A DNA stretch of 27,999 nucleotides from a virus. The notes beneath the pieces were generated by a model. That model did no database searches, was not told the DNA's origin, and saw nothing but the letters and a program-made list of their open reading frames with translations. This document shows, in pieces, positions 2,123 to 23,657 of this stretch (position 1 is its first letter; each line of letters begins with the position of its first letter). The stretch is taken from positions 1 to 27,999 of the IMG/VR virus record IMGVR_UViG_3300029893_000055. The stretch is one strand, 5' to 3'. A program made the position numbers and the translations under genes.

Positions 2123-2578
2123 ATGGCGCCGCGCGATACCCGCACACTCGACCTCTTGGCCTGGCGGCCGCCGGAGCCGCCGGCGGTGCGCTATCGCGAG
2201 CCGGAGGCGATCCGCGCGGCCAGCATCGCCGCCAGCTTCATCCGCGCGATGAAGCTGGCCGAGGACTTCTCGGGCAAGAGCCGCGACGAGATCGCGGCCG
2301 AGATGGCCGACTACCTGGGGGACGGCACGACCAAGAACGTGCTCGACCAGTACATGTCGGAGGCGCGCGACTACACCATCAACGTCGTCCGCTTCCTCGC
2401 CTTCATCCACGCCACCAGGGACTTCCGGCTGCTGTCGCTGCTGGCGGCGCCGTTCGGCCTGGCGGTGATCGAGGAGAAGTACCTGGGCGCCGTCGAAGAG
2501 GCGATGTGCGCGGCCGAGATCGAGGCGCTGGGCAACCGCAAGGCGCTGGCCCGGCGCAAGTGGAAGGGGGGAGCATGA
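2123..2578 (+). CDS. CII-like small DNA-associated protein (151 aa)
   Basis: The central part resembles phage CII-type regulators: SRDEIAAEMADYLGDGTTKN (about 52-71), a VLDQYMSEAR segment, then VRFLAFIHATRDFRLLSLLA (about 87-106). That pattern (helix-turn-helix, then a helical bundle ending in FxLLxLLAxPxGL) is commonly seen just before the transposase in alphaproteobacterial Mu-like phages. The C-terminal end is basic (ALARRKWKGG). It starts two bases after the parB stop and ends in an ATGA overlap with the transposase. A role in transposition control is inferred from position. The family match is from memory and moderate. Confidence 0.7.
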   Translation: MAPRDTRTLDLLAWRPPEPPAVRYREPEAIRAASIAASFIRAMKLAEDFSGKSRDEIAAEMADYLGDGTTKNVLDQYMSEARDYTINVVRFLAFIHATRDFRLLSLLAAPFGLAVIEEKYLGAVEEAMCAAEIEALGNRKALARRKWKGGA

Positions 2579-4542
2579 GCGACGACTGGCAGTGGCTCTC
2601 GGCCGCCGCGATGGCCAAGGCGCTGGGCATCACATCCCGGGCTTTCAACGATCGCGTCGACGAGAACGGCTGGCGGGCTTCTGGACTGCGCTTCAGCCCG
2701 TCCAATCCGAACGGAACCTGGCGCCGGCGTCGCGGCAATGGCGGCGGCTTCGAGTATCACTACCGCCTGCTGCCCGACCGCCTGCGCCTGGCCTGGCAGA
2801 CCAAGCATCAGCCGAAGCCGGCGGACCCGACCGCCGACCGCGCGCAACGCAAGGCGGTGCTGGCGCGCGACGAGGCCTGGCGGTTCTACGATTCCTGCAC
2901 CGACAAGAAGAAGGACAAGGCCAAGCACAAGCTGGCGATCCTGCTGCAGGTCGACGAGGCCGAGCGCCGCGGCATGGGCACCGAGCAGGCCGTCGCCGAG
3001 ATCGCCGCCGAGCACGAGGTCGGGCGCAGCACCGTCTTCCTGTGGAAGCAGGAGGTCGCCGGCATCCCGCGCGAGGACTGGCTGCCGTACCTGGTCGACC
3101 GCCGCGGCGGCCGCCAGCCCTCGGCCGAGATGAGCGAAGACGCGTGGGAGGTCTTCAAGGCCGACTACCTGCGCGCCGAGGCGCCGACGGCGGCCGAGTG
3201 CTACAACCGGCTGCGCCCCGTGGCCGAGGCCAAGGGCTGGGCGCTGCCGAGCCTGAAGACCGTGCAGCGCAAGATCGAGCGCGACATCGATCCCAAGACG
3301 CTGGTGTGGTGGCGCGAAGGCCCCGAGGAGTACGAGCGCAAGTTCCCGGCGCAGCGCCGCGACAAGAGCGTCTTCCATGCCCTGCAGGCCGTCAATTACG
3401 ACGGCCACAAGCTGGATCTGCGCGTGACCTGGCCGGGGATCGACAAGCCGACCCGCGCCTTCCTGCTGGGTTTCCAGGACATCATGTCCGGGATGATCTT
3501 ATCCTGGCGGCTGGACATCAGCGAGAACGCCTACGCGTTTCGCCTGGCCTACGGCGACATGATCGAGAGCCATGGCGTCGCCGATCTGGTGTTCTCGGAC
3601 AACACGATGGCGGCGGCGGCGAAGGAGAACACCGGCGGCTCGCGCTATCGGCGCCGGTTCAAGATCAAGGACGACGACCCGATCGGCCTGTTCCCGCAGA
3701 TCGGCTCGGAGGTGCGTTTCACCAAGCCGGCGCACGGCCAGTCCAAGCCGATCGAGCGCGCCTTCGGGACGCTGTCGCGCTACATCTCGAAGGCCCCGGA
3801 ATGCGCCGGCGCCTATACCGGCAACAGCACCGAGAACAAGCCGCACAATTACGGCCAGGCGGCGATCGCGATGGCGGACCTGGTCAAGGTCGTCGAGCGC
3901 GAGATCCACCGCTTCAACCACGACCCGGCGCTGAACCGGACCAACGGCAAGGGCCGCTCGCGCGCCGAAGTCTTCGCCGAATCCTACGCCAAGAGCCCGA
4001 TCCGCACCGCCGACGGCCTGCCGCCGGAGAAGCGCCGCATGTGGCTGCTGGCAGCGCAGGGCGTGACCTGCCGCGCCCCGAGCGGCGAGGTGCATCTGTA
4101 CGGCAACCGCTATTGGCACGAGCGGCTGATCGGCCTGATCGGCAAGAAGGTCGTGGTCTGGCACGACCCCGACCACCTGCACGATCGGCCGGTGCATGTC
4201 TACCGGCTGGACGGCTCCTACGTCTGCGCCGCCGAGTGCATCGCCGATACCGGCTTCGACGACGTCGCCGGCGCCAAGGCGCACGGCGCCGCGGTCAAGA
4301 CCTTCGTCAAGGCCGGCAAGGCGCTGGCCCAGGCCGAACGCACGCTGGACCACCGCGACGTCGCCGCCCTACAGGCCGATCCCGAGGACGCGCCGCTGCC
4401 CGAGGCCAAGGTGGTGCGGCCGTTCTTCGGCATGGCCGGCAACGCCGCCTTGAAGCCGGTGGCCCAGGCCCTGCCGAACGACGACGACGACGATCCGTTC
4501 TTCACCAACATCGCTCGCGCCTTTGCGCGGGCAAAGGAATAG
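2575..4542 (+). CDS. A: Mu A-type DDE transposase
   Basis: This 655-residue protein catalyses strand transfer of phage DNA into target DNA, for integration and replicative transposition. Residues 1-70 form the Mu N-terminal winged DNA-binding domain (WQWLSAAAMAKALGITSRAF). The core carries the DDE triad as D276 (AVNYDGHKLD), D342 (LVFSDNTMAA) and E394 (GQSKPIERAFG). Around it are segments close to MuA: WRLDISENAYAFRL, KIKDDDPIGLF, AGAYTGNSTENKPHNYG. The Mu transposase C-terminal beta-barrel follows (about 490-560), ending in an acidic tail. Length is close to MuA (663). The start is ATG 2575 in an ATGA overlap, with AAGGGGGG ahead. It is intact, with all catalytic residues present, so likely functional. 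Confidence 0.97.
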   Translation: MSDDWQWLSAAAMAKALGITSRAFNDRVDENGWRASGLRFSPSNPNGTWRRRRGNGGGFEYHYRLLPDRLRLAWQTKHQPKPADPTADRAQRKAVLARDEAWRFYDSCTDKKKDKAKHKLAILLQVDEAERRGMGTEQAVAEIAAEHEVGRSTVFLWKQEVAGIPREDWLPYLVDRRGGRQPSAEMSEDAWEVFKADYLRAEAPTAAECYNRLRPVAEAKGWALPSLKTVQRKIERDIDPKTLVWWREGPEEYERKFPAQRRDKSVFHALQAVNYDGHKLDLRVTWPGIDKPTRAFLLGFQDIMSGMILSWRLDISENAYAFRLAYGDMIESHGVADLVFSDNTMAAAAKENTGGSRYRRRFKIKDDDPIGLFPQIGSEVRFTKPAHGQSKPIERAFGTLSRYISKAPECAGAYTGNSTENKPHNYGQAAIAMADLVKVVEREIHRFNHDPALNRTNGKGRSRAEVFAESYAKSPIRTADGLPPEKRRMWLLAAQGVTCRAPSGEVHLYGNRYWHERLIGLIGKKVVVWHDPDHLHDRPVHVYRLDGSYVCAAECIADTGFDDVAGAKAHGAAVKTFVKAGKALAQAERTLDHRDVAALQADPEDAPLPEAKVVRPFFGMAGNAALKPVAQALPNDDDDDPFFTNIARAFARAKE

Positions 4543-4571
4543 GGCGGGCCGCCTGATCCGCGGTCCCGCCC
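4542..4571 (+). terminator. Strong hairpin between transposase and ATPase genes
   Basis: GGGCGGGCCGC (4542-4552) pairs with GCGG-T-CCCGCCC (4560-4571) around the loop CTGATCC. That gives an 11-bp, nearly all G-C stem with one bulged T. It begins on the last base of the transposase stop codon. No T-run follows, so it is not a classical intrinsic terminator. It could stabilise the upstream 3' end, attenuate, or mark a processing site that sets the A to B ratio. Confidence 0.4.
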
Positions 4572-4603: not shown

Positions 4604-5560
4604 ATGAACATGCTCGCCACCGAAACCGCGCTGTCCGATGACGAGATCGAGCGCATCCGCGCCGCCGCCAAGGAAGCGGCCGCCGGCTTCCCGACCATCA
4701 AGGCCGCGGCCGACGACGCCGGCATTCCCTACCAGACCTTCCACGGCTTCCTGAACGGCAAGTACCAGGGCAACAACGCGGCCCAGGCGCGGCTCCTCCA
4801 GAAGTGGCTGTTCGCCCTGCAGGAGCGGGCCGAGAGCGCCTTCGTGCTGCCCGAGCTGCCCGGCTTCCAGCCGACGCCGACGGCCAAGCGCTTCTGGTCG
4901 GTGCTGCAGTACGCCCAGCAGCTCGGCCGCATCGGCGTGATCGCCGCCGGCGCCGGCGTCGGCAAGACGACGACCCTGGAGACCTACGCCGCCCAGCACC
5001 CCAATGTGTGGCTGGCGACGATGGACCCGAGCACCGCCGGCGTCGGCACGATGCTGCGCGAGCTGGTCGACGTGATGGGCCTGGCCGAGAAGACGTCGAC
5101 CGGCCTGGTGCGGGCGGTCGGCGCGGCCGTGAAGGGCAAGCGCGGGCTGATCCTGATCGACGAGGCGCAGCACCTGTCGGCCGCGGCGCTGGAGACCCTG
5201 CGCAGCCTGAACGACCGCTTCAAGGTCGGCCTGGTGCTGGCCGGCAACGAGACCGTCTACGCCCGACTGGAGGGCGAAGGCCGCAAGGCCACCTTCGCCC
5301 AGCTCTTCAGCCGCATCGGCATGCGCGTGACCCGCACCAAGCCGACCGACGGCGACGTCGACGTGCTGCTGCAGGCCTGGGGTGTGGCCGACCCGCAGGA
5401 AGTCCGGCGGCTGAAGGGCTACGCCGCAAAGCCGGGCGCGCTGCGCGGCATGACCTACTGCCTCGAGCAGGCGACGCTGGACGCGGCCGGCGCCGGCGTG
5501 CCGCGCACGATCGAGCACATCACGGCCGCCTGGACGCGCCTGACCAACGAGCCTGGCTGA
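4604..5560 (+). CDS. B: Mu B-type AAA+ ATPase, target DNA activator
   Basis: This 318-residue protein is the partner of transposase A. In Mu, B coats target DNA in an ATP-dependent way, delivers it to the transpososome and gives target immunity. An N-terminal helix-turn-helix region is visible (FPTIKAAADDAGIPYQTFHG, about 29-48). Then come Walker A GAGVGKTT (116-123), Walker B LILIDEAQ (182-189) and a sensor-like LVLAGNE (about 210-216). Length matches MuB (312). The start is ATG 4604 with GGGGGA upstream; ATG 4610 is a second choice. It is separated from A by 61 bases that hold the hairpin. Confidence 0.94.
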   Translation: MNMLATETALSDDEIERIRAAAKEAAAGFPTIKAAADDAGIPYQTFHGFLNGKYQGNNAAQARLLQKWLFALQERAESAFVLPELPGFQPTPTAKRFWSVLQYAQQLGRIGVIAAGAGVGKTTTLETYAAQHPNVWLATMDPSTAGVGTMLRELVDVMGLAEKTSTGLVRAVGAAVKGKRGLILIDEAQHLSAAALETLRSLNDRFKVGLVLAGNETVYARLEGEGRKATFAQLFSRIGMRVTRTKPTDGDVDVLLQAWGVADPQEVRRLKGYAAKPGALRGMTYCLEQATLDAAGAGVPRTIEHITAAWTRLTNEPG

Positions 5561-16259: not shown

Positions 16260-17644
16260 GCGCCGGAATCCTGCACCTCTACCAGCGGCGCTGGCTGGAG
16301 GACAAGGCGCGCTTCAAGATCGGCATGTTCGCACGCCAGACCGGAAAGACCTTCACCACCACCCTGGAGATCGTCGACGAGTGCATGGAGGCCGAGCTGC
16401 TCGGCCGCAAGGAACGCTGGGTCATCCTGTCGCGCGGCGAGCGCCAGGCGCGCGAGGCGATCGAGGAAGGCGTCAGGCTGCACTGCAAGGCCTATGGCCA
16501 AGCCTTCGAGGCCAGCGAATACGACTTCGTGGCCCAGCACGGCAAGGTGTCCTACAAGGCGGTGGAAGTGACGTTCCCCGGCGGTTCGCGCGTCACCGCG
16601 CTGCCGGCCAACCCCGATACGGCGCGCGGCTTCTCGGCCAACGTGTTCCTGGACGAGTTCGCCTTCCATCAGGACAGCCGCAAGATCTGGACGGCGCTGT
16701 TCCCGGTGATCTCGAAGCCCGGCCTGAAGCTGCGCGTCACGTCGACGCCGAACGGCAAGGGCAACAAGTTTCACGACCTGTGGACTGGCAAGGATGCCGT
16801 CTGGTCGCGCCACAAGGTGGACATCTACCAGGCCGTTGCCGAAGGACTCGAGCGGGACATCGACGAGCTGCGCGCCGCCCTCGGCGACGACGACGCCTGG
16901 CGCCAGGAGTACGAGCTGGAGTTCCTCGAGGAGGCGTCGGCCTGGTTGTCCTACGACCTGATCGCGGCCTGCGAGCACGAGGACGCCGGCAGGCCCGAGC
17001 TGTACCAGGGCGGCAGCGTCTTCATCGGGAACGATATCGCCAGGCGCAAGCACCTGTGGGTGGCGTGGGTCTGGGAGGAAGTCGGCGACGTGCTGTGGAC
17101 GCGCGAGATCCGCACGCTGCAGAACGCCACCTTCGCCGAACAGGACGCGGTGATCGACGAGCTGATGGCGCGCTACCGCGTGACCAGGCTGTCGATGGAC
17201 CAGACCGGCATGGGCGAGAAGCCGGTCGAAGACGCCCAGCGCCGGCACGGCACGGCCCGGGTCGAAGGCGTCCTGCTGGCCGGATCGCGGCCTCTGGATA
17301 TCGCCACCGCCGCCCGACAGCGGTTCGAGGATCGGCGGCTGCGCATACCGGCCGGCGATCCCGTCCTGCGCGCCGACCTGCACAAGCTGAAGAAGGTCAT
17401 CGGTCCGACAGGGCACCCGCGCCTGGTCGCCGATGATGATTCGGAAGGGCACGCCGACCGCACCTGGGCGGCGTTCCTGGGGATCGCCTCGGCCGAGGGC
17501 GGCGGTCAGCCGCCGGCCGGCGCCAACGTCGCCAAGTCGGACAGCAGCTACCGGCCGGCCGGGCGGCCGGCGGTCAACCAGGGCCGCCCGCTGATCGCGC
17601 GGCCGTTCGAGGGGGGGATCCATGGGCGTCATCGCCGCCGTTAA
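16256..17644 (+). CDS. Terminase large subunit (Mu gp28-like)
   Basis: This 462-residue protein is the ATPase motor and headful nuclease for DNA packaging. Walker A is ARQTGKT (26-32) and Walker B is VFLDEFAF (130-137, D133/E134). A coupling segment RVTSTPNGKGNKFHDLW follows. The C-terminal nuclease half contains the expected acidic positions in FIGNDIARRKH, SMDQTGMGEK and GHADRTWA. Mu-like phages package host-flanked DNA by a headful mechanism. Its last 23 bases overlap the portal gene, which is normal for this pair. Confidence 0.94.
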   Translation: MSAGILHLYQRRWLEDKARFKIGMFARQTGKTFTTTLEIVDECMEAELLGRKERWVILSRGERQAREAIEEGVRLHCKAYGQAFEASEYDFVAQHGKVSYKAVEVTFPGGSRVTALPANPDTARGFSANVFLDEFAFHQDSRKIWTALFPVISKPGLKLRVTSTPNGKGNKFHDLWTGKDAVWSRHKVDIYQAVAEGLERDIDELRAALGDDDAWRQEYELEFLEEASAWLSYDLIAACEHEDAGRPELYQGGSVFIGNDIARRKHLWVAWVWEEVGDVLWTREIRTLQNATFAEQDAVIDELMARYRVTRLSMDQTGMGEKPVEDAQRRHGTARVEGVLLAGSRPLDIATAARQRFEDRRLRIPAGDPVLRADLHKLKKVIGPTGHPRLVADDDSEGHADRTWAAFLGIASAEGGGQPPAGANVAKSDSSYRPAGRPAVNQGRPLIARPFEGGIHGRHRRR

Positions 17645-19067
17645 GAGGCTGTTCGGAGCCGGCGCGGAGACCGCGTCCGCGCCGCCGCCGGCCGCGCTGC
17701 GCGAAGCCGCCGGCGCCACCATCGATCGCGACGAGGCCGAGTGGCGGCGCCTGACCGGCGACGCCCGCCGGGACCTGGCGCCGCTGACCCAGAAGCGGAT
17801 GCAGGATCTGGCGGTCTATCTGTGGAAGGCCAACCTGCTGGCCAACCGCATGGTCGAGCTGCCGGTCGCCTATCTGCTGGCCGAGGGCGTCAGCCTGTCG
17901 GCGCCGGACCCCGAGGCACAGGGCTGGCTGGACGCCTTCTGGCGCGATCCGATCAACCGGCTCGACCTCAAGCTGCCGAAGAAGGTGCGCGAGCTGGCGC
18001 TCTATGGCGAGCAGTGCTGGCCGGTGTTCGTCAACGAGTTCGACGGCATGGTGCGCCTGGGCTACGTGGACCCCGGGCTGATCGAGACGGTGGTCACCGA
18101 TCCCGACAACATCGAGCAGCCGATCGGCATCGTCACGGTGCGCGACAAGCGCGGCAAGGCCCGGCGCTACCGGGTGATCGTCAACGGCCCCGAGACCGTG
18201 TTCAGCCGCCGCACCCAGGAAATCCGCGCCAGCTTCGGCGACGGCGAGTGCTTCTACTACGCCATCAACGACCTGTCGAACGCCACCCGGGGGCAGTCCG
18301 ATCTGATGCCGGCGATGGACTGGCTGGACGCCTACGACGAGGCGCTGTTCGGTGAGCTGGAGCGCTGGAATTACCTGCGCGCCTTCATCTGGGACGTCAC
18401 CCTGAAGGGCGCGACGCAGGAGGAGGTCAACCGGCGGGCCGCCTCGATCGTGGTACCGGAGGCCGGCGGCATCCGCGTGCACAACGATTCGGAGGAATGG
18501 GACGCCGTGTCGCCGGAAATCAAGTCCTACGACGCCGGCGCCGCGGCGCGGCTGTTCCGCAATCACGTCCTGGGCGGCGGCTCGATTCCCGAGCACTGGT
18601 ACGGCGGCGGCGGCGACGTCAACCGCGCCACCGCCGGCGAGATGGGCGAGCCGACCTTCAAGATGTTCTCGATGCGCCAGGCGCTGTGGAAGGCGATCCT
18701 GGAGGAGATCGGCACGTATGTCGTCCGACAGCGCGCCAAGGCGCTGTACGGCCGCGAGCCCGACCCTGCCAATCAGGCCGACACCGAGGCCTATGCGGTC
18801 ACCGCCAACTTCCCCGAGCTGACGGCGCGCGACACCACCAAATACGCCGCCGCCCTGGGCCAGGTCGTCGCCGCCGGCGCCCAGGCGATCACCGAGGGCC
18901 TGCTGTCGAAGAAGACCGTCACGGCGATCGTCGCGTCGATCGCCGGCCGCCTGGGCGTGGAGATCGACGTCGACGCCGAGCTCGAGACAGCGCTCGACGA
19001 GGCCGCCGCCAAGGCCGAGCGCGACGGCTTCCCCGACTTCCCGGAGGACGACGGAGAGCCGGCATGA
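17622..19067 (+). CDS. Portal protein
   Basis: This 481-residue protein lies directly after the terminase and forms the ring through which DNA enters the head. It looks like a general siphophage portal rather than the DUF935 portal of Mu itself. Recognisable parts are YLWKANLLANRMVELPVAYL (about 67-86), VRELALYGEQCWPVFVNEF, YVDPGLIETVVTDPDNIEQP, YYAINDLSNATRGQSDLMPA and a late segment PEHWYGGGGDVNRATAGEMG. The C-terminal region is helical and acidic. The start is ATG 17622 with GAGGGGGG ahead. It ends in an ATGA overlap. Confidence 0.9.
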   Translation: MGVIAAVKRLFGAGAETASAPPPAALREAAGATIDRDEAEWRRLTGDARRDLAPLTQKRMQDLAVYLWKANLLANRMVELPVAYLLAEGVSLSAPDPEAQGWLDAFWRDPINRLDLKLPKKVRELALYGEQCWPVFVNEFDGMVRLGYVDPGLIETVVTDPDNIEQPIGIVTVRDKRGKARRYRVIVNGPETVFSRRTQEIRASFGDGECFYYAINDLSNATRGQSDLMPAMDWLDAYDEALFGELERWNYLRAFIWDVTLKGATQEEVNRRAASIVVPEAGGIRVHNDSEEWDAVSPEIKSYDAGAAARLFRNHVLGGGSIPEHWYGGGGDVNRATAGEMGEPTFKMFSMRQALWKAILEEIGTYVVRQRAKALYGREPDPANQADTEAYAVTANFPELTARDTTKYAAALGQVVAAGAQAITEGLLSKKTVTAIVASIAGRLGVEIDVDAELETALDEAAAKAERDGFPDFPEDDGEPA

Positions 19068-19291
19068 TCCCGGCCCGCCGGGTGATCGTGCTCGCCATCG
19101 CGGTGCCGCTGGCCATCGACGTCCCGCGGCGCCTGGACGTTCGGCTGGCGCGCATGCAAACCGAGCCGCCGAATCCGCGACGGAGTAGCGGCAGGATCAC
19201 GGCGGCGCGCGTCGCCGCCTTCCGCCGCAGGCTGGCGGCGCGGCGCGGGCGGATCGGCGCCTGGTGGTGGAGGCTGCTGCCGTGCCGATGA
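19064..19291 (+). CDS. Possible small basic protein between portal and MuF (75 aa)
   Basis: A frame opens in an ATGA overlap with the portal stop. The N-terminal 20 residues are hydrophobic (RRVIVLAIAVPLAIDVPRRL is the core). The remainder is very rich in Arg, with WWWRLL near the end. It overlaps the MuF start by up to 28 bases. Without it the portal-MuF gap would be about 200 bases, unusual in this packed region, which favours coding. No family is recognised; a small membrane or nucleic-acid-binding protein is possible. Confidence 0.5.
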   Translation: MIPARRVIVLAIAVPLAIDVPRRLDVRLARMQTEPPNPRRSSGRITAARVAAFRRRLAARRGRIGAWWWRLLPCR

Positions 19292-20658
19292 CGAAGGCCG
19301 AGCGCGACGCCGCCTTCCGCAAGGCGCGATCCGAGCAGCTCAAGCGCCTGGTCGGGCTGCAGCGCCGGGCGGCCGAGGAGGCGATCGCGCTGCTCGATGC
19401 GGCGGCGGTCGAGATCCGCGGCAAGCTGGCCGGCGCCTCCGAGTTCGAGGCCTGGCGGCTGGCCGGCGTGCAGCGCCAGGTCGACGCCCGCCTCGACGAG
19501 CTGGGCGCGGCGCTGGCCCAGGCCGGCACGGCGGCCGCCGGCGAGGCCTGGGCCGCCGGCGTCGAGCTGGTCGACGCGCCGATCGCCGTCGGCGGCGTGC
19601 AGCTCGGGGGCGTGCTGGGCGAGATCGATCCCGGCCAGCTCATGGCCATGCGCAGCTTCATGACCGACCGGCTGAAGGACGTGGCGGCCGAGGCCGGCGC
19701 CAGGATCAAGACCCAGCTTGGCCTGGTCATGACCGGTGCGGTCAATCCCAACCAGGCGCTGGACGCGATCGCCGCCAGCCTGACCAGCGGCGGCCGCGGC
19801 CGCGCGATCACCATCATGCGCACCGAGCTGGGCCGCGCCTATTCGACGGCGGCGCACGAGCGGATGAGCCAGGCCGAGAAGGTGCTGGTGTCGCCTTCGG
19901 GCAAGCCGCTGCTCAAGAAACAGTGGCGGCGGTCCGGCAAGCGCCGAAGCCGTCCGAGCCACGACCTGGCCGACGGCCAGATCAAGGCCATCGACGAGCC
20001 GTTCAAGGTCGGCGGCACGGACATCCTGTTTCCGCGCCACCCCTCGGCGCCGGCCAGGCACAGCGTCAACTGCGGCTGCGTCAGCCTGCCCTACATGGAC
20101 GACTGGGAGCTGCGCCATCCCGGCGAGCGGCCGATCGGCGAGGAGGAGCGCGGCGATCCGGGCAAGCTGACGGTCGAGGACGCCCGCGCCCAGGGCTTCG
20201 CCCGCTGGGCCAAGCGGCTGGATTCGGGGAAGCTGACGCCGGGCGGCCATTGGGAGACCGTCGCCGCCCTGCCGCGGGCGCTGGATCAGCCGCTGGCCGC
20301 GCGCGGCATCCAGCCGCTGTCGCCGGACGTCGGCATCTCCGACCGCAAGATCGCGCGCATGCGCCGGGAATCGAAGAAGCATCCCCTGCCGATGTCGATC
20401 ATCGAGACGCTGCCCGACGTCATCGCCCGGCCGAAGGCGGTGCTGCGCCATGTCGGCGCCGGCGCGTCCGGCCGGGACCTGGTGTTCGTGGCCGATGTCC
20501 CGGGCGAGGACCGCCTAGCCAAGATCGTCGTCAAGCTGGGCAGCGACAACGCCCGCGCCCGCCGGCGCCGGCACAACTGGATCCTGTCGGGCAAAATGGA
20601 GACACGCGATATCCTGGCCAACGAGGGCCAGTTCGAGCTGCTGACGGGAAGCTTGTGA
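19264..20658 (+). CDS. F: MuF head protein fused to a probable PBECR-type nuclease
   Basis: This 464-residue protein has the MuF (SPP1 gp7-like) domain with ITIMRTELGRAYSTAAHERM (about 182-201) and the Cys/His end HSVNCGC (266-272). MuF proteins are minor head proteins attached to the portal and can be injected. Residues about 357-464 look like a phage-Barnase/EndoU/ColicinE5-D/RelE (PBECR) nuclease: MSIIETLPDVIARPKAVLRH (377-396), then RDLVFVADVPGEDRLAKIVV (404-423), and a basic end before GQFELLTG. Such C-terminal toxins occur on MuF proteins of many phages. No immunity gene is obvious. Start choices are GTG 19264, GTG 19282 or ATG 19288. The nuclease call is by pattern and not proven. Confidence 0.82.
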   Translation: MVEAAAVPMTKAERDAAFRKARSEQLKRLVGLQRRAAEEAIALLDAAAVEIRGKLAGASEFEAWRLAGVQRQVDARLDELGAALAQAGTAAAGEAWAAGVELVDAPIAVGGVQLGGVLGEIDPGQLMAMRSFMTDRLKDVAAEAGARIKTQLGLVMTGAVNPNQALDAIAASLTSGGRGRAITIMRTELGRAYSTAAHERMSQAEKVLVSPSGKPLLKKQWRRSGKRRSRPSHDLADGQIKAIDEPFKVGGTDILFPRHPSAPARHSVNCGCVSLPYMDDWELRHPGERPIGEEERGDPGKLTVEDARAQGFARWAKRLDSGKLTPGGHWETVAALPRALDQPLAARGIQPLSPDVGISDRKIARMRRESKKHPLPMSIIETLPDVIARPKAVLRHVGAGASGRDLVFVADVPGEDRLAKIVVKLGSDNARARRRRHNWILSGKMETRDILANEGQFELLTGSL

Positions 20659-20973
20659 CCGCCGGGCGGGGTGCGCGACGTCCCCGACCACACTACGGCG
20701 CCCATGCCGGCGCCGGCGGGCCGCTCCCCTCACGGGGCGAGCGGGCTGAAATCGCCTTCTCAGCACGCCCGGCGGTCATGCACTCAGTATAGGCCCGTCG
20801 ATCCGGCGGCGAAAGCCCCTGCGCGGGCCGCACAACGGACATAGCCCTTTCGGGGGCTCGGTCGTACCCCGGAATGGGTAGACAGGCCTCCTGGCGCTCT
20901 CAGGCGCTCTCAAGCCGCTCTCAAAGCGGGGGGAGAAAACCAGGTCGCCGTTTCGTGGGAGGGCGGCGCGTCT
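20659..20973. other. Non-coding stretch between the two late units
   Basis: I see no gene here. It holds a hairpin (20722-20743: arm CGCTC-CCC, arm GGG-c-GAGCG) after the MuF stop, without a T-run. There is a TATAGG motif at about 20790-20795. Three direct copies of CGCTCTCA lie at 20895-20902, 20905-20912 and 20916-20923, and the last forms a small stem with AGCGG (20925-20929). This is the longest gap in the window and separates the two late transcription units. Confidence 0.55.
20893..20923. repeat. Three direct copies of CGCTCTCA
   Basis: The copies begin at 20895, 20905 and 20916, spaced 10 and 11 bases apart, which is one helical turn. The first two are identical over ten bases (GGCGCTCTCA). 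They end 51 bases before late operator 2. Helical phasing is typical of a regulator array, but chance or slippage could also explain it. Confidence 0.5.
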
Positions 20974-20994
20974 ACCGGACAGGTGTCCGGGTTA
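20974..20994. promoter_or_regulatory. Late operator 2: second copy of the palindromic site
   Basis: The core CCGGACAGGTGTCCGG (20975-20990) and five flanking bases are identical to the copy at 13349-13369. It lies 87 bases before the first gene of the head/tail unit. Placing the start about 43 bases from the dyad centre gives a start near 21026, with CATAGG (21013-21018) as a weak -10. Sharing the site with the unit that follows mor suggests one activator drives both late units. Confidence 0.7.
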
Positions 20995-21081
20995 TCGACC
21001 TCGCGCCGTCTCCATAGGCTGGCACCACATCGGCCGCGGATCAAGGCCGACGAAATCCCCGAGCCCCGGAGACGAACCGAC

Positions 21082-21333
21082 ATGCCGAACGAACCCGCCG
21101 CCGTCCAGCCCGACGCCATCGCCATCGCCAAGGCCCTGAAGGCCGCCGGCATCACCGTGCGCGTCCACAAGACGGATCGCGACGGCAATCCGGTGAAGGA
21201 CAAGGAGACCGGCCGCCAGATGGTGATCGAGCGCGCGGCCGCCGCCGCCGACGTCATCGCCGCCCGCGTGCTGGACGGCGGCAAGCTCCGCCTGGTGACG
21301 ATCGACGGCCGCAAGCACGAGGTCGCCGCGTGA
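21082..21333 (+). CDS. Hypothetical small protein heading the head unit (83 aa)
   Basis: I do not recognise it firmly. Residues 12-30 form a helix (AIAIAKALKAAGITVRVHKT). The second half is a beta/alpha stretch ending LRLVTIDGRKHEVAA. It starts at ATG 21082, with CCGGAGACG as ribosome site, and is the first gene after late operator 2. Its stop overlaps the protease-capsid start (GTGATG). A head-related accessory role is inferred from position. Confidence 0.75.
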   Translation: MPNEPAAVQPDAIAIAKALKAAGITVRVHKTDRDGNPVKDKETGRQMVIERAAAAADVIAARVLDGGKLRLVTIDGRKHEVAA

Positions 21334-23657
21334 TGGGCGATGCCATCGTCGATCTGCGCGAGGCCCAGGCCGGCGGCGCCGCGCTACCGGCCCTCGGCCT
21401 GATCGGCGAGACGGCGATCCGCGAGGCCTTCGCCGGCGACTTCATGCAGCTGGGCGACCTGCTGCGGGTGTCGCTGCGGCAGCTCCTGAAGCTGCAGGGC
21501 GATGCCGATCCCTACCCCTTCATTCGCGCCGTCTTCGCCGACAGCATCGTCGTCGAGCGGGACGGCGGTTTCTGGCGCTACCCCTACACGGTCGACGGCA
21601 CCGCCGTGACCTTCGGCGCCGCCGAGCGGGTCATCCAGAGCTACGAGGCGCCGGGTGCGGCCGCCGCGGTCATGGAAGCCGCCGGCGCCTTCCTCGAGGC
21701 GAAGTCCGAGGGCAAGGGCGCGACGGCGTTCCGGGTGCGGATCATCCGCGCCGGCCTGTCCGGCAACGGCAACTACTATCCCGACGCGGTGCTGCGCGAG
21801 GCGGCGCCGTTGTTCGAGAACGCCAGGGTCTTCGTCAAGTCGGACGAGGAGCACCTGGCCGGCAAGGGCAAGGACGTGCGCAACCTGGTCGGCCGGCTGG
21901 CCAATGTCGGCTTCGTCGAAGGCCAGGGCACGGATACCGGCGAGCTGCAGGGCGAGCTGCAGATGCTGCAGCCGGCCGGCGACGTCGCCGTCAAGCTGCG
22001 CGAGGCCTGGGACCGCGGCATGGCCGGGCTGTTCGGGTTCTCGATCGACGCCAAGGCGCAGGCGCGCCGGCTGACCGTCGGCGGCCGCAGCGTCCAGCGC
22101 GCCAGCAAGTTCGTCAAGGTGAACTCCGTCGACCTGATCGTCGAGCCCGGCGCCGGCGGCGAGGTCATCGACTGCATCGAGGCCGCCCACGGCGGCGAAG
22201 AGGGAAAGAAGCTCATGGATCGTGAACAGATCATCAGCCTGCTCGAAGCGCAGCGCCCCGACCTGCTGGCCGGCAAGGATGTCCATGCCATTTCCGACGG
22301 CGACCTGCAGGCGCTGCTGCGCGAGGCCGTCGTCAAGCCGGCCGCCCCGAAGGAGCTACCGGACAGCACCAGCGCCGACCCCGCCGCCGACGCGGTGCGC
22401 GTTGTCGAGGCTCGCTTCGCCGCCCGCGACGCCGTCGCCGGTTCCGGCCTGCCGCCGGCCGCCCAGACCCGCGTGCTGCGGCTGATCGAGGCCGCCGGCG
22501 ACTACGGCCCGGCCGCCGTCGGCGCCGCGATCAAGGGCGAGAAGGAGTACCTGGCCAGCTTCACCGAGTCCGGCGCCGTGCGCGGTCTGGGCATGCGGAT
22601 CGAGCCCGGCGAGAGCCGCGATCAGAAGGTGGCGCAGATGCTGGAGGCCTTCTTCGATCCGAGCCACAAGGATCACGGCCAGGCACGCAGCTTCAAGGAG
22701 TGCTACGTCCAGATCACCGGCGACCGCCTGGTCACCGGCCTGCGCCGGCACTGCGACGAGGCGCTGATGCGCGAGGCTCTGGGCACCGCCGAGCTGTCGG
22801 ACGTGCTGGGCAACGCCATCCACCGCCGGATGATCGCCGACTATCGCACCCCCGACGTCTACGGCGCCTGGCGCCAGGTCGTCACGGTCGGCAACGCCGT
22901 CGACTTCCGCAGCCACGAGCGGGCGCGCGTCGGCGGCTACGGCGACCTGCCGGCGGTGGCCGAGGGCGCCGACTACACGGCCCTGACCAGCCCGAGCGAC
23001 GAGAAGGTCTCGATGGCGGTCACCAAGCGCGGCGGGCTCGAGACCCTGACGCTGGAGGCGATCAAGAACGACGACGTCGGCATGATCCGCATGATCCCGC
23101 TGCGGCTGTCCCGTGCGGGCAAGCGGACCCTGGCGAAGTTCGTCTTCGACTTCATCCGCACCAACCCGGTGATCTACGACGGCACCAACCTGTTCACCGT
23201 CGGCCATGGCAACCTGGGATCGGCGGCGCTGGCGGCTGCGAGCTACGCGGCGGCGCGGCTTGCGATGATCAAGCAGACCGAGCTGGACGACCACGACACG
23301 GTCGGCGTCGGGCCGAAGTTCCTGCTGGTGCCGCCGGACCTCGAGGAGACCGGGGCCGACCTGTTCCGCCGCAACACCGAGCAGGACAAGACGTTCCTGC
23401 AGAGCCTGAGCCCGACCATCATCCCGGTGTGGTACTGGTCGGACGCCAACGACTGGGCGGCGATGGCCGATCCGCTCGACGTGCCGACCATCGAAATCGC
23501 CTTCCTGGACGGCAACGAGGAGCCCGAGCTGTTCGTCCAGGATGCGCCCAACGCCGGCTCGATGTTCGCGGCCGACAAGATGACCTGGAAGATCCGCCAC
23601 ATCTACGGCGGCGCGGTCACCGATTTTCGCGGCGCCTACAAGGCCGTGGTGGCCTGA
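21333..23657 (+). CDS. Fused prohead protease and major capsid protein
   Basis: The 774-residue product has three parts. Residues about 55-100 form a small beta domain (VFADSIVVERDGGFWRYPYT). Residues about 130-285 resemble phage prohead proteases: AGLSGNGNYYPDAVLREAAP, a candidate His (SDEEHL, about 174) and Ser (GLFGFSIDA, about 237). From about 295 a scaffold-like helical linker leads into an HK97-fold capsid (from about 400), with TVGNAVDFRSHERARVGGYG, KRGGLETLTLEAIKNDDVGM and a C-terminal RHIYGGAVTDFRGAYKAVVA. Fused protease-capsid genes are known in some siphophages. Start is ATG 21333; GTG 21330 is possible. An in-frame ATG at 22215 may make the capsid part alone. Confidence 0.88.
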   Translation: MGDAIVDLREAQAGGAALPALGLIGETAIREAFAGDFMQLGDLLRVSLRQLLKLQGDADPYPFIRAVFADSIVVERDGGFWRYPYTVDGTAVTFGAAERVIQSYEAPGAAAAVMEAAGAFLEAKSEGKGATAFRVRIIRAGLSGNGNYYPDAVLREAAPLFENARVFVKSDEEHLAGKGKDVRNLVGRLANVGFVEGQGTDTGELQGELQMLQPAGDVAVKLREAWDRGMAGLFGFSIDAKAQARRLTVGGRSVQRASKFVKVNSVDLIVEPGAGGEVIDCIEAAHGGEEGKKLMDREQIISLLEAQRPDLLAGKDVHAISDGDLQALLREAVVKPAAPKELPDSTSADPAADAVRVVEARFAARDAVAGSGLPPAAQTRVLRLIEAAGDYGPAAVGAAIKGEKEYLASFTESGAVRGLGMRIEPGESRDQKVAQMLEAFFDPSHKDHGQARSFKECYVQITGDRLVTGLRRHCDEALMREALGTAELSDVLGNAIHRRMIADYRTPDVYGAWRQVVTVGNAVDFRSHERARVGGYGDLPAVAEGADYTALTSPSDEKVSMAVTKRGGLETLTLEAIKNDDVGMIRMIPLRLSRAGKRTLAKFVFDFIRTNPVIYDGTNLFTVGHGNLGSAALAAASYAAARLAMIKQTELDDHDTVGVGPKFLLVPPDLEETGADLFRRNTEQDKTFLQSLSPTIIPVWYWSDANDWAAMADPLDVPTIEIAFLDGNEEPELFVQDAPNAGSMFAADKMTWKIRHIYGGAVTDFRGAYKAVVA
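22200..22217 (+). promoter_or_regulatory. Possible internal ribosome site and start inside the protease-capsid gene
   Basis: GAGGGAAAGAAG (22200-22211) precedes an in-frame ATG (22215-22217) that begins MDREQIISLLEAQRPDLLAG, a typical scaffold/capsid N-terminus, directly after the protease part ends. Initiation here would give a 480-residue product made of linker and capsid. Mu itself uses an internal start in its protease gene I to make scaffold Z, so the layout has a precedent. The spacing from GAGGG to ATG is somewhat long. Confidence 0.45.

What the first reader, a model, noticed from the sequence alone, without database searches (positions are those of the whole stretch)
20332..20658. 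Toxin-type nuclease domain at the C-terminus of the MuF head protein
Residues 357-464 look like a PBECR-family domain (Barnase/EndoU/colicin E5-D/RelE fold), with a short helix, KAVLRH strand, LVFVA and KIVVK strands and a basic cluster. MuF proteins can be packaged and injected, so the phage could deliver an RNase into a new host at infection, for competition or host takeover. No immunity gene is evident next to it; the small protein 19064-19291 and the gap after it are the only candidates.
Basis: partly seen in the sequence, partly recalled or inferred. Interest (0 to 1): 0.65.

Follow-up and report, generated by a model that had tools for sequence, protein, structure and literature searches.

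The report
MuF head protein, altered RNase-fold tail
A bacterial virus related to phage Mu carries, on the end of a head protein that sits at its DNA portal, a swappable domain with the fold of RNA-cutting toxins, but the histidine expected in the active site has become an arginine, so it is a member of a known family whose cutting activity is doubtful here.

Summary
The C-terminal domain is real. A profile built from other Mu-type MuF C-terminal domains, window excluded, matches residues 344-464 at 48.6 bits; the best of 20,000 shuffles scores 9.6. It is the MuF_C domain (PF18819), which Iyer et al. 2017 class among the PBECR (predicted RNase, BECR-fold) families. AlphaFold2 gives a confident helix-plus-five-strand model (pLDDT 89, pTM 0.84) that matches viral MuF_C and nuclease models but no solved RNase. 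The phage is Mu-like (MuA, MuB). Among 52 non-redundant MuF proteins with the same head module, 39 end after MuF, 7 carry MuF_C, and others carry ADP-ribosyltransferase, phosphoribosyltransferase, metallopeptidase-like or unassigned cassettes. This fits a swappable, virion-carried effector. However, the predicted catalytic histidine, kept in all six other MuF_C domains of this head family and in 18 of 22 domains compared, is Arg365 here. The domain also evolves faster than its backbone. The strand-4 Ser442 and neighbouring R, K, H and N remain. No immunity gene was found. Best reading: a MuF_C effector domain, probably delivered with the DNA, with altered or lost RNase activity. Toxin activity is unproven.

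The parts
19264..20658 (+). MuF minor head protein with C-terminal MuF_C cassette (ATG start more likely at 19288)
   Evidence: ORF; Phage_Mu_F E 4.4e-9; phrog_2468 head morphogenesis 7.5e-27
19768..20082 (+). Phage_Mu_F domain (residues 169-273)
   Evidence: Pfam PF04233
20197..20655 (+). C-terminal cassette, linker (F312..W315) plus MuF_C core, residues 312-464
   Evidence: linker shared with other MuF_C bearers and absent in short MuF relatives
20293..20655 (+). MuF_C (PBECR-type, BECR fold) core, residues 344-464
   Evidence: own profile 48.6 bits; AlphaFold2 model pLDDT 89.4; viral fold matches
20356..20358 (+). Arg365 (CGC) in the N-terminal helix, at the column that is His in 18 of 22 aligned MuF_C domains
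20587..20589 (+). Ser442 in strand 4, the conserved alcohol residue (Ser/Thr in all rows compared)
20572..20577 (+). His437-Asn438, conserved HN before strand 4 (N in all rows except Mu; HN in the head-family members)
17622..19067 (+). portal protein, upstream neighbour
   Evidence: phrog_10963 portal 9.7e-71
19064..19291 (+). 75-codon ORF between portal and MuF, ATGA overlaps at both ends; not shared with relatives
21079..21333 (+). 84-codon head-module gene between MuF and capsid; found with and without a cassette, so not a dedicated immunity gene
21330..23657 (+). protease-scaffold/major capsid fusion protein, used as anchor for the survey
   Evidence: Phage_capsid_4 3.2e-45; NF045541
2506..4542 (+). 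Mu-type transposase (MuA)
   Evidence: DDE_2 2.8e-33
4604..5560 (+). Mu-type transposition protein B
   Evidence: Phage-MuB_C 2.5e-17; phrog_296 1.2e-66

Best explanation
The feature is a MuF_C domain (PBECR type, BECR nuclease fold) carried as a replaceable C-terminal cassette on the portal-associated MuF head protein of a Mu-like transposable phage. Shown: family, predicted fold, cassette swapping in relatives, loss of the predicted catalytic histidine. Inferred: MuF brings a few copies of the domain into the procapsid through the portal and the domain enters the new host with the DNA, where the ancestral form acts on RNA (host or phage mRNA, or RNA-based defences). In this phage the helix His is Arg365 and the domain evolves fast, so catalysis is most likely lost or changed. 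The remaining surface with Ser442, His437 and the basic cluster would then bind nucleic acid, or cut it weakly by an arginine-based mechanism.
For: Profile without the window: 48.6 bits against at most 9.6 in 20,000 shuffles. The Pfam MuF_C signal is of the same strength in the Mu-type relatives, with weak PBECR2/PBECR3 matches in some. Model pLDDT 89.4, pTM 0.84, helices then five strands. BFVD matches with probability 1.00 to a 'Phage MuF C-terminal domain-containing protein', a phage nuclease and polyvalent proteins. Cassette survey: 52 non-redundant MuF proteins, 39 short, 7 MuF_C, 6 other. The MuF tree needs 9 changes of tail type, with MuF_C, ART and no tail inside one supported group. 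His to Arg at residue 365, with R, K, HN and Ser kept. Tip length of the cassette 1.28 against 0.53 for the backbone, ratio 2.4 against a tree mean of 1.13. MuF_C as PBECR, the His plus Ser/Thr configuration, an Arg-bearing sixth family, and inactive MuF-C in Mu: Iyer et al. 2017 (PMC5512222). Portal targeting and proposed delivery: SPP1 review (PMC6316719).
Against: No solved structure matches significantly by fold or sequence, so the link to tested RNases rests on published family assignment and topology. No MuF_C activity was found in the papers searched. Delivery of this protein is not tested. An Arg-type PBECR family exists, so Arg365 may not abolish activity. Only one sequence carries the Arg variant.
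Confidence: 0.7

Rival explanations
1. Active injected RNase effector: the domain cuts RNA in the newly infected cell, with Arg365 standing in for His as in the Arg-bearing PBECR family.
For: BECR topology. Ser442, His437-Asn438, Arg368 and Lys371 kept; in the degenerate domains L019 and JBD18 the helix Arg and Lys are lost together with His. Iyer et al. report one PBECR family with Arg in place of His.
Against: All six other MuF_C domains of this head family, including the three that group with the window in the MuF tree, keep His. The Trp-Asp after AVL is also changed to Arg-His. The domain has the fastest relative rate of the set.
Confidence: 0.2
2. Structural or nucleic-acid-binding tail: a former nuclease domain kept for head assembly, DNA piloting or RNA binding, as proposed for the inactive MuF-C of phage Mu gp30.
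For: His lost separately in Mu, JBD18, L019 and the window. Iyer et al. suggest RNA binding for Mu MuF-C. No immunity-like gene next to the MuF_C versions, whereas L044, L049 and L051 have a small ORF overlapping the MuF stop by 4 bases.
Against: 39 of 52 relatives with the same head lack any tail, so it is not needed for assembly in general. Tails are exchanged for enzymes.
Confidence: 0.35
3. Polymorphic toxin in the strict sense: a toxin for killing competitors with a cognate immunity gene, as in Firmicutes MuF toxins.
For: Cassette polymorphism and the published MuF toxin family (PMC5576092).
Against: No immunity gene: the downstream gene is shared by cassette-free phages; ORFs in the 420-base gap lack the codon-position GC pattern of the genes around them. 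His lost.
Confidence: 0.08
4. Chance resemblance or non-functional read-through after the MuF domain.
For: Weak direct Pfam score (15 bits, below cut-off).
Against: Profile score far above shuffles, third-position GC 0.92 as in real genes, confident fold, intact homologues in the same position.
Confidence: 0.01

Closest known systems
Phage Mu gp30 (MuF) C-terminal domain, MuF_C PF18819
   Same: Same place behind a MuF domain, same motif order (LP..A.P.AVL, strands, end of chain), Mu-like phage
   Different: Mu lacks the His-bearing helix motif altogether; the window keeps the helix with Arg365 and keeps HN and Ser; its backbone belongs to another head module with a protease-capsid fusion
MuF_C domains of Pseudomonas phage B3, a Rhizobium lusitanum Mu-like locus (L008) and L027/L028-type viral contigs
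   Same: Clear homologues, about 26-38% identity over the domain where measured; L027 has the same head module (67% capsid identity)
   Different: They carry His where the window has Arg365
PBECR1-5 domains of polyvalent proteins (Iyer et al. 2017)
   Same: Predicted BECR fold, strand-4 Ser/Thr; one family there has Arg in place of His
   Different: Only weak profile matches to PBECR2/PBECR3 in relatives, none in the window
MuF polymorphic toxins of Firmicutes temperate phages (Jamet et al. 2017)
   Same: MuF N-terminal part with exchangeable C-terminal domains
   Different: Mu-like transposable phage; no adjacent immunity gene; the short MuF form is the commonest state

Membership tests
MuF_C (PF18819) | Sequence profile match | tested here: met
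   Pfam score 15 bits is below the 27.6 cut-off, but Mu gp30 scores 21 and other Mu-type tails at most 17; own profile of nine MuF_C domains, window excluded, 48.6 bits
MuF_C (PF18819) | C-terminal to a MuF domain in a head gene cluster | tested here: met
   Phage_Mu_F at residues 169-273, between portal and capsid genes
[quoted passage not shown]
   AlphaFold2 model: helices then strands at 56-60, 69-75, 82-88, 102-110, 121-126 of the modelled 128 residues
[quoted passage not shown]
   Arg365 at the His column; His absent, but Arg is the published alternative
PBECR / BECR RNase | Ser/Thr in strand 4 | tested here: met
   Ser442 in strand 438-446
PBECR / BECR RNase | Structural similarity to solved BECR RNases | tested here: not met
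   No PDB match at E <= 0.001 for the window or the L027 domain
PBECR / BECR RNase | RNA cleavage | not testable with these tools
   needs biochemistry
MuF polymorphic toxin | Exchangeable C-terminal domains on a constant MuF part | tested here: met
   52 non-redundant proteins, seven tail states, at least 9 changes on the tree
MuF polymorphic toxin | Adjacent small immunity gene | tested here: not met
MuF polymorphic toxin | Packaging and injection of the protein | not testable with these tools
   inferred from SPP1 gp7 and proposals cited in PMC6316719

The most novel reading that the evidence does not exclude
The window's domain is an arginine-type variant of an injected phage RNase, with changed specificity or a binding role, in a Mu-like phage head family that exchanges several different virion-carried effector enzymes behind one MuF scaffold.
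Probability: 0.2. Interest if true: 0.55.

Novelty: new member of a known kind. Interest (0 to 1): 0.38.

Why it matters
If MuF tails are injected, this head family offers a natural series (no tail, His-type MuF_C, Arg-type MuF_C, ART, phosphoribosyltransferase, metallopeptidase-like) on nearly the same backbone. That would let one ask directly what virion-carried effectors do at the start of infection, and whether MuF_C, named since 2017 but without a reported activity in the papers searched, is an RNase.

Tried and rejected
Single-protein scan of viral contigs with the C-terminal domain found no confirmed relatives, two alignments gave no or poor patterns, and both genome-contig scans found none. 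Tblastn of the domain in the phage collection gave only chance matches in Pseudomonas lysis genes. The best plasmid match (Rhizobium, E 0.02) turned out to be a true Mu-like MuF_C protein. The idea that the L032/L074 tails are a second PBECR type is not supported (hhalign 0.2% probability, no Pfam match). Top PDB fold matches are noise; a Serratia contact-dependent inhibition protein ranks third at probability 0.20 only. The 75-codon ORF as immunity gene: no relatives in the fetched loci, no convincing family. The 84-codon gene as immunity gene: it also occurs in phages without any cassette. PADLOC gave nothing useful.

Full report
What is there. The window is a whole IMG/VR virus record of 27,999 bases. 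It encodes a Mu-type transposase (2506-4542, DDE_2 E 2.8e-33) and transposition protein B (4604-5560), a late activator, a glycosyl hydrolase 108 lysis enzyme, terminase, portal, MuF, a protease-capsid fusion and minor tail protein genes. It is therefore a Mu-like transposable phage. ORF 19264-20658 has a Phage_Mu_F domain at residues 169-273.

Is the C-terminal domain real. Pfam gives MuF_C (PF18819) at 15 bits, below its cut-off of 27.6, but phage Mu gp30 itself scores only 21 and most other Mu-type tails tested 15 to 17, some with weak PBECR2 or PBECR3 matches. A profile of nine such tails without the window (Rhizobium locus L008, B3, AFS-2018a, JBD18 and five viral contigs) matches residues 344-464 at 48.6 bits (E 3.3e-17 for one sequence); the best of 20,000 shuffles scores 9.6. 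Most of the viral contigs were fetched with a twelve-residue motif that fits the window and L008, a mild bias that does not explain a match over the whole 120 residues. Third-position GC (0.92) equals that of neighbouring genes. The module begins near residue 312, where a linker shared with other MuF_C bearers starts.

Fold. AlphaFold2 on an alignment of 12 natural sequences gives mean pLDDT 89.4 and pTM 0.84, with short helices followed by five strands. The His-bearing relative L027 gives the same order. Foldseek against viral models finds a 'Phage MuF C-terminal domain-containing protein', a phage nuclease and polyvalent proteins with probability 1.00. Against the PDB nothing is significant, and a profile search of PDB sequences finds nothing. 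The BECR assignment therefore rests on Iyer et al. 2017 (PMC5512222), who place MuF-C among the PBECR families and describe the core as an N-terminal helix plus four or five strands, with a helix histidine and a strand-4 Ser/Thr.

Active site. The helix reads SDRKIARMRRESK here against SDRQVLHMLREAK in L027. The histidine column is His in 18 of 22 aligned domains (some rows nearly identical), Arg in the window, Glu in L019, Ser in JBD18 and absent in Mu. In L019 and JBD18 the neighbouring Arg and Lys are lost as well; in the window they remain (Arg368, Lys371), as do His437-Asn438 and Ser442. Iyer et al. report that one PBECR family has Arg in place of His and that Mu MuF-C is inactive. The window's domain is also the one with the largest rate excess: on a common topology its tip is 1.28 against 0.53 for the MuF backbone, a ratio of 2.4 against a tree mean of 1.13; L027 comes next at 2.0. 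L027, L048 and L090, which group with the window in the MuF tree (support 87, not starred), all keep His, so the change is most simply a loss in the window's lineage.

A swappable cassette. A capsid-anchored scan returned 80 loci with the same head module. Of 52 non-redundant MuF proteins, 39 end within 67 residues of the MuF domain, 7 carry MuF_C, and 6 carry something else: ADP-ribosyltransferase in L044 (E 5.4e-10), phosphoribosyltransferase in L086 (E 0.004, below Pfam's cut-off), an HETGH-bearing metallopeptidase-like tail in L051 and a JAB-like tail in L049 (both from motif inspection), and an unassigned tail in L032 and L074. The MuF tree needs 9 changes of tail; MuF_C, ART and no tail occur inside one supported group, L095, L044 and L080. 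Such fusions are known for MuF proteins (PMC5512222, PMC5576092). SPP1 gp7, the best-studied MuF protein, is brought into the procapsid by the portal, and toxin delivery by fused tails has been proposed (PMC6316719).

Immunity. The downstream gene at 21079-21333 has relatives at the same place in phages without any cassette. The ORFs in the 420-base gap do not show the codon-position GC of the surrounding genes. The 75-codon ORF 19064-19291 overlaps its neighbours by ATGA at both ends but has no relative in the fetched loci. [quoted passage not shown] The numbers are small.

Conclusion. That this copy is an active RNase toxin is not shown, and the loss of the predicted catalytic histidine speaks against it. 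The most likely role is a virion-carried domain of RNase ancestry with altered or lost catalysis. Delivery and nucleic-acid binding are inferred.

Noticed in passing
19064-19291: A 75-codon Arg-rich ORF sits between portal and MuF with ATGA overlaps on both sides; L027, L028, L042 and L048, relatives in the same head family, have no such insert.
   Followed up: partly
L044 4909-5130, L049 3722-3946, L051 5083-5232: Small ORFs overlap the MuF stop by four bases behind ADP-ribosyltransferase, JAB-like and HETGH tails: candidate immunity or partner genes for those cassettes.
   Followed up: no
20659-21078: About 420 bases between the MuF and the next head gene without a coding-like ORF.
   Followed up: partly
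2506-4556: Two long overlapping forward frames (2506-4542 and 2592-4556); only the first is the Mu transposase, the second has no family match and is likely spurious.
   Followed up: yes
L010, L011: Mu-type MuF proteins in other viral contigs end in different tails: by eye a GNAT-like tail in L010 and an unassigned tail in L011.
   Followed up: no
L018 6453-6830: A MuF_C-like stretch without the helix histidine lies inside a 3,275-residue open frame that looks like a polyvalent protein.
   Followed up: no
L032 3512-4909 and L074 2481-3863, MuF C-termini: A shared tail of about 130 residues, 36% identical, with no Pfam match; its MuF carriers are not neighbours in the tree.
   Followed up: partly
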